Shown here: in pieces, positions 2,316 through 18,617 of the stretch
How positions within the stretch are numbered: the first letter of the stretch is position 1
Layout of the letters: every line of letters starts with the position of its first letter
Source of the DNA: Oscillospiraceae bacterium
Lineage (GTDB): Bacteria > Bacillota > Clostridia > Oscillospirales > Oscillospiraceae
NCBI GenBank assembly: GCA_017461445.1
Contig: JAFTXW010000030.1
Location: 1 to 64,000, forward strand
Length of the DNA stretch: 64,000 nucleotides
Reading direction: 5' to 3'
Notes under the pieces: model-generated
Told to the model about the DNA's origin: nothing
The model's database searches: none
Seen by the model: the letters and a program-made list of their open reading frames with translations, nothing else
Program-made: the position numbers and the translations under genes

Positions 2316-2381
2316 TGGAGTTAGGATTTTTCTGATGCTTGCCCCTAATTCCTCACTCCTAACTCCTAATTCCTAACTGAA
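2316..2381. repeat. intergenic palindromic repeat, TAGGAATTAGGAGTTAGGAA type (family A)
   Basis: Left arm GGAGTTAGGATT, right arm CTAATTCCTCACTCCTAACT followed by CCTAATTCCTAACT. Related copies lie at 5036-5095, 11045-11132, 15944-16012, 17315-17360 and near 18580. Confidence 0.7.
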
Positions 2382-4982: not shown

Positions 4983-5035
4983 ACAGACATAATTTATTCA
5001 AATATCCGTGTTAAAGTGATTTTGTACATTTGCGG

Positions 5036-5095
5036 TAATTAGGAATGCGGAATTTCGCCTGCAGCAAGGTGTATTCCTAACTCCTAATTCCTCAC
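5036..5095. repeat. intergenic palindromic repeat, family A
   Basis: TAATTAGGAATGCGGAATT at the left, ATTCCTAACTCCTAATTCCT at the right, with a CCTGCAGCAAGG centre. Confidence 0.7.
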
Positions 5096-11000: not shown

Positions 11001-11044
11001 ATTAGAAGTTAGGAATTTTTGTGTGGAGAGTGGCGTTGTGCCCG

Positions 11045-11132
11045 AGTTAGGAATTAGGAGTTAGGAATGAGGAATTGATTTTGCGCGGTGTTTCCGGAAC
11101 AATTCCTAATTCCTCACTCCTAATTCCTAATT
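11045..11132. repeat. intergenic palindromic repeat, family A (largest copy)
   Basis: GTTAGGAATTAGGAGTTAGG runs into AATGAGGAATT at the left; AATTCCTAATTCCTCACTCC then TAATTCCTAATT at the right are its inverse. A partial copy precedes it at 11001-11020. Confidence 0.8.
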
Positions 11133-11213
11133 GCAAAAATTTTGTAAATTCTTGCAGCGTTTACGTCCTGTTCACAGTTATCTTCTACCATAACAGGAAA
11201 AAGGAGTGGTGTG

Positions 11214-12792: not shown

Positions 12793-12819
12793 GTTTTTGA
12801 CAATTTGATAACCCAATGC

Positions 12820-13020
12820 GTGGCATCCCTGGCGTTTGGCTGAGGGTGCTGAACAAGATAACCGGGTGCGAATCCCGGACGGTACCGCCGCTGTATGTGC
12901 TGATGGAGCGATCGATAGGCGAAAGCCGGTCACTGGGGAAACCCGGGAAGGCCGATCGCCCCGCGGGAGCAGTCCCCCGCAAGGCATAAGTCAGAAGACC
13001 TACGCACTGGATTCTCCCAT
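12820..13020 (+). promoter_or_regulatory. cobalamin (B12) riboswitch aptamer
   Basis: The segment carries the class hallmarks in order: GAATCCCGGACGGTACCGCC, the B12-box region GAAAGCCGGTCACTGGGGAA then ACCCGGGAAGGCC, and near the 3' end AAGTCAGAAGACCT. It lies between a consensus promoter and a terminator hairpin at 13060-13100, so adenosylcobalamin binding probably ends transcription before the two downstream genes. Boundaries are approximate. Confidence 0.92.
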
Positions 13021-15490: not shown

Positions 15491-15943
15491 ATGGATCACA
15501 GCTATCAGGCAGCGGAATTGTTTTTAAACGGCAGCAACTGCGCCCAGGCCATTGTGGTAGCCTTCTGCGATGTGACGGGGCTGGAGCCGGAATTTGCGGC
15601 CCGGATGTCCTCCTCCTTTGGCGGCGGCATGGGACGGATGCGGGAGGTCTGCGGGGCCGTCAGTGGGATGCTGATGGTGGCAGGCCTGCTCTACGGCTAC
15701 GATGACCCCGGCGAGAAGGATATCAATAAGAAAGAACACTACAGACTGGTGCAGGAGCTGGCCGGGAAATTCCGGGAGGAGATCGGCAGCATCGTCTGCC
15801 GGGAAATTTTGAAGAATCCCCCCACCGATCCCAATCCCACCCCCCGGACGGCGGAATTCTACAAGACCCGCCCCTGCGCCAGAATGGTCATGACAGCCGC
15901 AAGAGTGCTGGATGCCTATATTGCCGAACACCCCATTCCCTAA
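15491..15943 (+). CDS. C_GCAxxG_C_C family redox-type protein
   Basis: The 150-aa product shows the defining cysteines: NGSNCAQAIVVAFC, SFGGGMGRMREVCGAVSGML (the GxCGAxxG block), EIGSIVCREIL and RPCARMVMTAARVLD. The family is thought to bind a redox cofactor and is common in strict anaerobes, but no reaction is established. ATG at 15491 follows TGGGAGG. It has its own promoter and is followed by a family-A repeat rather than a normal terminator. Confidence 0.88.
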   Translation: MDHSYQAAELFLNGSNCAQAIVVAFCDVTGLEPEFAARMSSSFGGGMGRMREVCGAVSGMLMVAGLLYGYDDPGEKDINKKEHYRLVQELAGKFREEIGSIVCREILKNPPTDPNPTPRTAEFYKTRPCARMVMTAARVLDAYIAEHPIP

Positions 15944-16012
15944 GTTAGGAATTAGGAGTTAGGCGTGAGGAATTTGGGTCAGGGTCAATTCCTAACTCCT
16001 CATCCCTAACTC
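15944..16012. repeat. intergenic palindromic repeat, family A
   Basis: GTTAGGAATTAGGAGTTAGG at the left, AATTCCTAACTCCTCATCCC at the right; begins directly at the upstream stop codon. Confidence 0.78.
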
Positions 16013-16031
16013 ACAGTACGGAGGCTTTACC

Positions 16032-16544: not shown

Positions 16545-17320
16545 TCGTCAAACGCGATTGCATCTACCCCCCAAAAGGAACCAACCGCCCCCTGCACATC
16601 TGGCTGCCGGATAATTACGCCGAAACCAAGGAACGCTACCCCGTCATGTACTTCTTCGACGGTCATAACCTGTTCTCCGACGAGGACGCCACCTACGGCA
16701 AATCCTGGGGGCTGAAGGCCTTCCTGGAGGGCTGGGACAAGGACATCATCGTGGTGGGCATCGAATGCGGCCACGATGGTTATGAGCGGCTCAGCGAATA
16801 CCTCCCCTACCCCGCCAACAAGACCAGCCACTTCGGCAAATTCACCCCCATGGGCCACGAGACCATGGAGTGGATCGTAAATGAGATCAAGCCCGTCATC
16901 GACGCGGAGTACCGCACCATCCCCTTCCGGGAGTGCACCGCCATCGGCGGCTCCAGCATGGGCGGCCTGATGGCTATTTATGCCGCCGTTCACTACAACC
17001 GTTGGTTCTCCAAGGCCGCCTGCGTATCCAGTGCCATTGGTTTCTGTATGCGGCCCCTGATGAAGGACATGAAGGAGAATCCCATCAGTGCCGATACCCG
17101 GATATTCCTGTCCTGGGGCACCCATGAGGCCTACGGACTGGAAGACCCCTCTCAGCAAGATACTTCCAGCAAGACCTACGGCTGGAACAAAAAGGTGGCC
17201 GACTATGCCGCCGCCCAGGGTGCGGCCGTCCAGATGTTCTGCCAGGTAGGCGGCTACCACTGCGAAGCCTCCTGGGAGGCGCAGGTGCCGGAATTTATGG
17301 ACTTCCTTTGGCTGAATTAG
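16541..17320 (+). CDS. alpha/beta hydrolase, putative esterase (EstD/Fes-like)
   Basis: The 259-aa product is an esterase-D-like alpha/beta hydrolase: KRDCIYPPKGTNRPLHIWLP, YPVMYFFDGHNLFSDEDATY, nucleophile elbow IGGSSMGGLMAIYAAV (GxSxG), and a C-terminal His in VGGYHCEASWEAQVPEF. Substrate is unknown; relatives hydrolyse acyl, acetyl or siderophore esters. It is cytosolic and translationally coupled to the cysteine-peptidase-like gene upstream. Confidence 0.82.
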   Translation: MIVKRDCIYPPKGTNRPLHIWLPDNYAETKERYPVMYFFDGHNLFSDEDATYGKSWGLKAFLEGWDKDIIVVGIECGHDGYERLSEYLPYPANKTSHFGKFTPMGHETMEWIVNEIKPVIDAEYRTIPFRECTAIGGSSMGGLMAIYAAVHYNRWFSKAACVSSAIGFCMRPLMKDMKENPISADTRIFLSWGTHEAYGLEDPSQQDTSSKTYGWNKKVADYAAAQGAAVQMFCQVGGYHCEASWEAQVPEFMDFLWLN

Positions 17321-17360
17321 GAGTTAGGAATGAGGAGTTAGGAATTTTCCTGACTCCTCT
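17315..17360. repeat. intergenic repeat, family A
   Basis: GAATTAGGAGTTAGGAATGA then GGAGTTAGGAATTTTCC; overlaps the last codons of the esterase gene. Confidence 0.65.
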
Positions 17361-17415
17361 CTTTTCTTAAACAAATTGTAAAATCCATCCAGGATTGCCA
17401 GTCTAGAGGTAATAT

Positions 17416-17445
17416 TTAACAAACCGGACACAGTTTACTTATACA
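17416..17445 (+). promoter_or_regulatory. possible promoter of the micro-gene cluster
   Basis: TTAACA (17416-17421), 18-base spacer, TATACA (17440-17445). The match is moderate; transcription from here would begin just before the folded leader at 17460-17516. Confidence 0.45.
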
Positions 17446-17459
17446 CAATTCACAAACTA

Positions 17460-17516
17460 CCTGTAAGATTATCCCATCGAACATGAGGCAACGGCCTCGA
17501 AAGTTCGGTTGACAGG
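17460..17516 (+). ncRNA. predicted folded leader of the micro-gene cluster
   Basis: Three nested stems are visible: CCTGT (17460-17464) with ACAGG (17512-17516), CGAAC (17478-17482) with GTTCG (17503-17507), and GAGGC (17485-17489) with GCCTC (17494-17498). No riboswitch class was recognised. It could be a regulatory 5' leader or an RNA element in its own right. Confidence 0.4.
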
Positions 17517-17560
17517 CTAATATAAAACACGCCAGATTTTTCTGAAAAGGAGATGTACTT

Positions 17561-17641
17561 ATGAAGAAGCTGCTCAAGGCTATCGGCAAGTCCATCGCTG
17601 AATCCTGCGTGGACATTGCTTACACCTTCGGTCTTCAGTAA
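17561..17641 (+). CDS. micro-protein 1 (26 aa), unrecognised
   Basis: The frame reads MKKLLKAIGKSIAESC then VDIAYTFGLQ and a stop. AAGGAGAT at 17547-17554 gives an ideal ribosome site. The N-terminal half is basic and amphipathic. It shares GKS-A-(E/D)-x-C and a later Y/TF pattern with micro-protein 3, so the two look paralogous. No known family was recognised; it could be a signalling, toxic or regulatory peptide. Confidence 0.6.
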   Translation: MKKLLKAIGKSIAESCVDIAYTFGLQ

Positions 17642-17709
17642 CCGAAGCCACCATATCTGCCCGGAGGCCGGGCTGAGGTCTCAATCGTATGAAAGGAGAA
17701 CACGCATTT

Positions 17710-17784
17710 ATGAATAAGTTCAAGAGCTATATCCGCGAAGCCGTCCTGCTGGCCGGCCAGTATCTGGATACCCTGATCCAGTAA
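17710..17784 (+). CDS. micro-protein 2 (24 aa), unrecognised
   Basis: The frame reads MNKFKSYIREAVLLAG then QYLDTLIQ and a stop. AAAGGAG lies at 17692-17698, with spacing slightly long. An in-frame ATG at 17689 would add seven residues but sits in front of the ribosome site. The sequence forms an amphipathic helix on paper. A GCCCG/CGGGC hairpin (about 17658-17672) separates it from micro-gene 1. Confidence 0.55.
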   Translation: MNKFKSYIREAVLLAGQYLDTLIQ

Positions 17785-17819
17785 AAACGCACCCCAAATA
17801 CAGAAAGGAGATTTGCTGC

Positions 17820-17897
17820 ATGAAAAACCAGACGCAAACCGTCGGCAAGTCTTTTGCCGACATCTGTGAGTGCTACTACAAAACCTTCCGCGTATAA
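17820..17897 (+). CDS. micro-protein 3 (25 aa), unrecognised
   Basis: The frame reads MKNQTQTVGKSFADIC then ECYYKTFRV and a stop, with AAAGGAGAT at 17804-17812. The block VGKSFADIC aligns with IGKSIAESC of micro-protein 1, followed in both by a Tyr and TF. A bidirectional terminator starts seven bases after the stop. Confidence 0.58.
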   Translation: MKNQTQTVGKSFADICECYYKTFRV

Positions 17898-17903
17898 AAA
17901 ATG

Positions 17904-17931
17904 TCCCGAAGTCCTCAGGCTTCGGGATTTT
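17904..17931. terminator. bidirectional terminator between micro-genes and the YbaK-like gene
   Basis: TCCCGAAG (17904-17911) pairs with CTTCGGGA (17920-17927). T-rich tracts occur on both sides: TTTT after it on the plus strand and CATTTTTTAT after it on the minus strand. It overlaps the end of the convergent gene. Confidence 0.85.
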
Positions 17932-18554: not shown

Positions 18555-18617
18555 AATTAGAAATGTCCTTTTCCCACGCATTCCTAACTCCTAACTCTGC
18601 GAAAGGGGGCAACCTTC

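What the first reader, a model, noticed from the sequence alone, without database searches (positions are those of the whole stretch)
17416..17931. Three consecutive unannotated micro-genes (24-26 codons) behind a folded leader
Three short frames lie in a row, each with a good AAAGGAG-type ribosome site and its own stop, ending at a strong terminator. Proteins 1 and 3 share GKS-A-(E/D)-x-C followed by Tyr and TF, so they look like diverged copies; protein 2 is an amphipathic 24-mer. A three-tier stem-loop (17460-17516) lies between a plausible promoter and the first gene. The group could be a secreted peptide signal, a small membrane toxin set or regulatory peptides. Ribosome sites, stops and the paralogy are seen; function is unknown.
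Basis: partly seen in the sequence, partly recalled or inferred. Interest (0 to 1): 0.85.

Follow-up and report, generated by a model that had tools for sequence, protein, structure and literature searches.

The report
Micro-peptide operon with pseudoknot start modules
A gut bacterium carries a small stand-alone operon for three 24-26-residue peptides; relatives indicate that such peptides are real and that a knotted RNA fold stands before many of their start sites, a combination that matched no family in the databases searched.

Summary
17439-17926 is a self-contained unit: promoter-like boxes, folded leader, three 24-26-codon frames with AAAGGAG-type sites, closing hairpin. The same unit occurs in 6 of 136 genomes of the genus (own included) at four different chromosomal sites, with one to five micro-ORFs; a close relative has the site empty. 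It was not found in 400 sampled family genomes (own excepted), nor in viral contigs, phages or plasmids.

Paralogous micro-ORFs within G011 and G061 show protein-level constraint (dN/dS 0.05-0.14); orthologues of ORF1 between genomes do not (0.50-1.17). Pooled, the 17 micro-ORFs use rpoB-like codons. ORF1 and ORF3 are paralogues; ORF2 is not demonstrably related.

Its 6-bp stem covaries; its 4-bp stem is nearly invariant, so the knot itself is inferred. No Rfam, Pfam, NCBIfam, PHROG, PADLOC family matches convincingly.

Best reading: an activator-dependent mRNA for leaderless, mostly amphipathic, membrane-active peptides (functional analogues of PSM-alpha or multi-peptide leaderless bacteriocins), each later cistron carrying a pseudoknot initiation module. 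Peptide function is inferred, not shown; AgrB is absent from all six genomes.

The parts
17412..17463 (+). conserved upstream promoter boxes (TTTAAC, GTTTAC, TTATAC as a -35-like hexamer at 17439-17444, ATTCAC), 19-nt spacer to the -10
   Evidence: aligned in six clusters; five promoters without G034 have mean majority fraction 0.70 against a shuffled maximum of 0.56 in 1000; box naming by eye
17464..17469 (+). -10-like TAAGAT
   Evidence: TAAGAT/TAGAAT/TAGTAT at the same place in six clusters; start of the RNA inferred a few bases downstream
17476..17509 (+). leader stem-loop P1 (17476-17482 with 17503-17509) with inner hairpin
   Evidence: fold; P1 kept in five leaders; in four leaders the inner arm is larger and partly covarying
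17509..17533 (+). near-invariant leader core TTGACAGGCTAATATAAAACACGCC
   Evidence: near-identical in 5 of 6 clusters, replaced in G070
17545..17552 (+). ribosome site of ORF1, AAAAGGAG
17561..17641 (+). ORF1, 26 aa, GKSIAESC type
   Evidence: homologues in G025, G011, G061 (0 of 5000 shuffles each)
17659..17682 (+). H-type pseudoknot-like element: S1 17659-17662/17670-17673, S2 17664-17669/17677-17682
   Evidence: 10 such elements in six clusters, S2 covarying; only match of this geometry plus AAAGGAG on either strand of the window
17692..17698 (+). ribosome site of ORF2, AAAGGAG
17710..17784 (+). ORF2, 24 aa
   Evidence: no significant similarity to the peptides it was tested against
17804..17810 (+). 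ribosome site of ORF3, AAAGGAG (no pseudoknot before it)
17820..17897 (+). ORF3, 25 aa, GKSFADIC...YYKTF
   Evidence: paralogue of ORF1 (0 of 5000) and similar to G025 ORF2 (27 of 5000)
17905..17926 (.). closing hairpin shared with the convergent YbaK-like gene; weak U-tract on the plus strand

Best explanation
A stand-alone, probably activator-dependent transcription unit that makes several leaderless micro-peptides from one mRNA. The RNA starts near 17474 with a stem-loop at its 5' end and a conserved 25-nt core. ORF1 is started from the leader; ORF2 (and in relatives most later cistrons) is started from a module made of a compact pseudoknot, about 9 nt, AAAGGAG and about 10 nt to AUG. I think the pseudoknot keeps the ribosome site free and acts as a ribosome or regulator landing site, so that each peptide is made independently and in proportion. 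The peptides, mostly amphipathic and neutral to weakly cationic, most likely act on membranes, as PSM-alpha or multi-peptide leaderless bacteriocins do. The unit is gained and lost as a block. Shown: unit, homologues, S2 covariation, constraint on some paralogues. Inferred: activator, pseudoknot formation and role, membrane action.
For: Six clusters in 136 genus genomes. Micro-ORF excess over shuffles in W, G011, G061: 0 of 1000 each; G070 2, G034 25, G025 28 of 1000. dN/dS 0.050, 0.062, 0.059, 0.143 for four paralogue pairs. Pooled codon usage of 17 ORFs nearer to rpoB (-0.005) than any of 12 window genes (-0.28 to -0.07); 0 of 2000 synonymous redraws. S2 pairing: 9 of 10 elements 6/6, one 5/6; 0 of 20000 re-pairings as good; covariation score 0.354 against 0.194, 0 of 500. 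Amphipathic moment: Fisher p 4e-7 over 17 related peptides, 1e-5 over a subset of 11. Promoter footprint. Different sites and an empty site.
Against: ORF1 orthologues show no synonymous excess in 6 of 6 comparisons, and two further paralogue comparisons are saturated. ORF3 codons are ordinary (-0.305) and the window's three together reach only 283 of 5000. Six of 17 peptides are not amphipathic (p above 0.3). The 4-bp stem never varies in the 8 aligned elements, so it has no covariation support; two pair measures are weak (18 and 61 of 500). Element boundaries for one search were set by hand. Seven of 17 ORFs lack the element. AgrB in 0 of 6 cluster genomes. No exporter or immunity gene lies inside the unit.
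Confidence: 0.5

Rival explanations
1. Peptide signal or intracellular regulatory peptides: the short peptides bind a protein partner (sensor, transcription factor or enzyme) rather than membranes, and differ between species because the signal code differs.
For: ORF1 is diverged between genomes (dN/dS 0.50-1.17) while a core remains; patchy occurrence; in G070 a response regulator with an AraC-type domain follows the cluster.
Against: No receptor gene is shared by the clusters' surroundings that were looked at; AgrB absent in 0 of 6; paralogous copies kept nearly identical in G011 look like dosage rather than distinct signals.
Confidence: 0.25
2. Multi-peptide leaderless bacteriocin proper: antibacterial peptides secreted against neighbours.
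For: Several 19-33-aa leaderless peptides per operon, within-operon paralogy, patchy presence.
Against: Net charges 0 to +4, partly below the +2 to +5 of listed multi-peptide members and with acidic residues; no immunity or transporter gene in the unit; no bacteriocin family match in NCBIfam or Pfam.
Confidence: 0.15
3. A regulatory RNA first: the folded leader and repeated elements are the function (for example a riboswitch-like or sRNA sponge), and the frames are translated mainly to control RNA fate.
For: Leader core more conserved than ORF1; repeated structured elements; no larger gene downstream on the same strand in the window.
Against: Low dN/dS among paralogues and rpoB-like codons mean that the peptide sequences matter; no Rfam match above gathering score.
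Confidence: 0.1
4. Simple hairpin, no pseudoknot: only the 6-bp stem forms before the ribosome site and GCCC/GGGC is conserved for another reason.
For: RNAalifold predicts the 6-bp hairpin alone; the 4-bp stem never varies.
Against: The 4-bp complementarity is kept in 8 of 10 elements with loop lengths that suit an H-type knot.
Confidence: 0.2

Closest known systems
Alpha-type phenol-soluble modulin (psm-alpha) operon of Staphylococcus aureus
   Same: Several 20-25-aa peptides on one polycistronic transcript, amphipathic, without secretion signal, narrow species range (PMC6428751, passages).
   Different: No sequence match in the libraries searched; no pseudoknot elements known to me; regulated by AgrA there, whereas AgrB is absent here (0 of 6); no Pmt-type exporter identified here.
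Multi-peptide leaderless bacteriocins (aureocin A70, garvicin KS, cereucins)
   Same: Three or four short paralogous leaderless peptides (30-34 aa in the passages seen) from adjacent genes (PMC6131525, passages).
   Different: Peptides here are shorter and less cationic on the whole; no immunity or transport gene in the unit; no family match.
Translational-operator pseudoknots (T4-type gene 32, rpsO/S15 incl. mycobacteria, alpha operon/S4)
   Same: A pseudoknot 5' of or at a bacterial or phage start site that sets initiation (PMC3014915 and PMC10931766, passages); S1 protein binds pseudoknots (same passages).
   Different: Here the element is repeated, once before each of several tiny cistrons of one mRNA, close to the ribosome site; no r-protein or gp32 gene follows.

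Membership tests
PSM-alpha peptides | 20-25-aa amphipathic helix peptides, several per transcript | tested here: inconclusive
   Lengths 19-33 aa, one to five per cluster; amphipathic as a set, but 6 of 17 not
PSM-alpha peptides | agr control | tested here: not met
   AgrB PF04647 in 0 of 6 cluster genomes and 15 of 130 others; genomes are incomplete
PSM-alpha peptides | sequence relationship to a PSM family model | tested here: not met
   No NCBIfam match up to E 1; in Pfam one member matched one family (SpdB, E 0.049); 16 of 17 peptides scanned
PSM-alpha peptides | export by Pmt ABC transporter, membrane lysis | not testable with these tools
   needs expression and assay
Multi-peptide leaderless bacteriocins | adjacent immunity/transport genes | tested here: not met
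   none inside the unit; window neighbours are an esterase, a YbaK-like gene and a TraX-like gene; relatives' flanks only partly examined
Multi-peptide leaderless bacteriocins | antibacterial activity | not testable with these tools
   needs bioassay
AgrD / cyclic lactone autoinducer peptides | AgrB partner next to a peptide with a conserved Cys | tested here: not met
   no AgrB in the six genomes; G011 ORF2-4 and G061 ORF2-5 lack Cys
H-type pseudoknot translational operators | two stems in pseudoknot topology with compensatory change | tested here: inconclusive
   S2 covaries; S1 complementarity kept but invariant in the 8 aligned elements
Known Rfam RNA families | score above gathering threshold | tested here: not met
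   only a cobalamin riboswitch elsewhere in the window; 19 sub-threshold matches up to E 10 in four loci

The most novel reading that the evidence does not exclude
A new kind of modular micro-peptide array: each later cistron is a cassette of pseudoknot, ribosome site and roughly 25-codon gene, duplicated and diversified in tandem behind a dedicated structured leader, and the whole unit moves between chromosomal sites. The leader and the pseudoknot would be two new RNA classes, the pseudoknot being the first intercistronic start module repeated gene by gene that I know of.
Probability: 0.35. Interest if true: 0.85.

Novelty: new variant of a known kind. Interest (0 to 1): 0.68.

Why it matters
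Genes of 25 codons are usually missed by annotation. Here comparative evidence for translation (paralogue constraint, codon bias) comes together with covarying RNA structure at the start sites, so the system offers a test of how bacteria start many tiny cistrons on one mRNA, and it gives a defined peptide set from uncultured gut Oscillospiraceae that can be synthesised and assayed. If the cassette reading holds, it is a new architecture for diversifying short peptides.

Tried and rejected
Weak model hits were read by eye and rejected: R1 hit in G039 lies in a coding stretch; R2 hits in G039, G069, G081, G117 and in family genomes G161, G251, G406 (two), G469 lack the second stem. Thirty-nine viral contigs with the arm pattern gave R3 E 0.36 at best: not members. 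Sigma-70 promoter with TTGACA of the leader core as -35: rejected, no -10 at the right distance in all members and the core lies inside a stem. Agr control: tested, not supported. The heptamer repeats at 17320 and 18576 were considered as ends of a mobile element; they occur all over the window (19 matches), and were not seen by eye in the G025 cluster stretch that was read, so they were set aside. Weak profile matches (PHROG E 0.037, Pfam SpdB E 0.049, PDB chain 6ner E 0.0091 without a stretch passing on its own) were treated as chance. First rpoB tree used wrong reading frames and a second script failed; only one search is used.

Full report
Observation. The three frames lie at 17561-17641, 17710-17784 and 17820-17897 with AAAGGAG-type sites. 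In dinucleotide shuffles of the stretch, 0 of 1000 give three frames of 20-60 aa with AGGAG 4-13 nt upstream; the mean is 0.034. ORF1 and ORF3 are paralogues (0 of 5000 shuffles reach their score); ORF2 shows no similarity to either (3865 and 4281 of 5000) nor to the two relatives' peptides it was tested against. The leader fold is modest by energy (z -2.1). The end hairpin is a better terminator for the convergent minus-strand gene than for this unit.

Relatives. A DNA search of all 136 held genus genomes, own included, gave 15 genomes at E up to 0.01, of which G025, G011, G061 and G034 proved to be members on reading. A leader model (R1) gave 7 of 136 and a start-element model (R2) 10 of 136; reading removed one and four. 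Both pointed to the same new locus in G070, which was in neither model. A third model (R3), built with G070, gave exactly the six at E up to 0.05. Five of the six helped to build R1 and R2, and four of them R3, so those re-finds are not independent. In 400 family genomes R3 hit only the own genome and R2 hit five, four of them false on reading; the exact core with two mismatches hit 1 of 300, the own genome. Plasmid and phage records gave no match; viral contigs gave none for the core and no convincing one for the arm pattern.

Anatomy across clusters. Counts of micro-ORFs with AGGAG-type sites: window 3, G025 2, G011 4, G061 5, G034 1, G070 2, in all 17; a further 35-aa frame in G070 has a weaker site and is left out of all counts. 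Each cluster ends in a hairpin, seen by eye in the five relatives. Four sites are seen: esterase/YbaK-like (window, G025), S4-like/HU-like (G061, G034; names recalled, the Pfam scan of the S4 gene was out of frame), 1.3 kb after FeoB (G011), and before a response regulator with an AraC-type domain (G070). In G011, G061 and G070 the esterase lies on another contig than the cluster, and in the window's genome, G011, G056 and G070 the S4-like gene is not on the contig of a cluster. G056 has esterase and YbaK-like genes about 55 nt apart with no cluster, where the window has 594 nt. In an rpoB tree of 27 rows, four of the five cluster genomes with rpoB fall in a clade of nine (support 99) that also holds five without; G061 lies elsewhere on a long branch, G034 has no rpoB row. 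The label is not significantly clustered (4 changes; 142 of 500 shuffles as low). Genomes are incomplete, so absences are soft.

Coding evidence. Of 12 comparisons, four paralogue pairs show constraint (dN/dS 0.050, 0.062, 0.059, 0.143; binomial p 0.0037, 0.00075, 0.0002, 0.017); six ORF1 comparisons between genomes do not (0.50-1.17); two are saturated. Pooled over 17 ORFs, codons lie nearer to rpoB usage than in any of 12 window genes that I took as background (0 of 2000 redraws). Tables of the window's genome were applied to all six genomes. The window's three alone reach 283 of 5000, ORF1 70, ORF2 382 and ORF3 3788 of 5000. So translation is well supported for the family and for ORF1, less directly for ORF2 and ORF3.

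RNA elements. Ten elements of the form GCCC-n-(6)-GGGC-(2-4)-(6) stand before AAAGGAG in the six clusters. The second stem pairs 6 of 6 in nine and 5 of 6 in one, and 0 of 20000 re-pairings between elements do as well; boundaries were set by hand and three elements of G011 are near-copies. On the MAFFT alignment of eight, 95% of cells pair (86% shuffled, 0 of 500), covariation 0.354 against 0.194 (0 of 500), pairs with two-sided change 4 (18 of 500), extra pair types 9 (61 of 500); the first stem never varies. In the two G070 elements the first stem pairs 3 of 4. R2 independently picks both G070 elements. Loop lengths of about 1 and 2-4 nt fit an H-type pseudoknot, by general knowledge; simultaneous formation is inferred. 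The leader arm in four clusters has 5 of 21 pairs with two-sided change (9 of 500). The window and G034 have a shortened arm.

Promoter. Five clusters share boxes at fixed distances from a TAAGAT-like -10 and a TTATAC-like hexamer 19 nt from it. A long spacer suggests an activator (inference). Window and G025 are orthologous sites, so part of that conservation is ancestry; G034 fits poorly.

Peptides. Lengths 19-33, charge 0 to +4. Helical moment is above shuffles as a set (Fisher p 4e-7; 1e-5 for a subset of 11 chosen to reduce relatedness), with W1 0.027, W2 0.09, W3 0.003 and six of 17 above 0.3. No convincing family in Pfam, NCBIfam, PHROGs, PADLOC or PDB sequences (16 of 17 peptides scanned in the first four).

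Literature. Nine searches listed no operon of this architecture; most of those papers were seen as listings only. Passages were read in PMC6428751, PMC6131525, PMC3014915, PMC10931766 and PMC8040213. The library lacks most subscription papers, so 'not in print' cannot be claimed.

Verdict. A real, patchily distributed micro-peptide operon family with its own leader and a repeated start element. Its working resembles PSM-alpha or multi-peptide leaderless bacteriocin operons, but membership in either is not supported.

Noticed in passing
window 2344-2380, 5035-5091, 11043-11134, 15941-16013, 17320-17335, 18576-18598: Heptamer-built repeats (GGAGTTA/GGAATTA/GGAGTGA), several in inverted pairs: 19 matches with up to 3 mismatches against 0.5 expected. 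They may be a small dispersed repeat family.
   Followed up: partly
window 12802-13020: Cobalamin riboswitch on the plus strand (60.1 bits), followed by small frames that look like a vitamin-uptake module.
   Followed up: no
L083 2231-2417 (G011): A small 61-aa-like frame follows the cluster's hairpin in G011, unrelated by eye to the micro-ORFs.
   Followed up: no
G021 (L145, L164): Two different full rpoB matches in one genome bin, perhaps a mixed bin.
   Followed up: no
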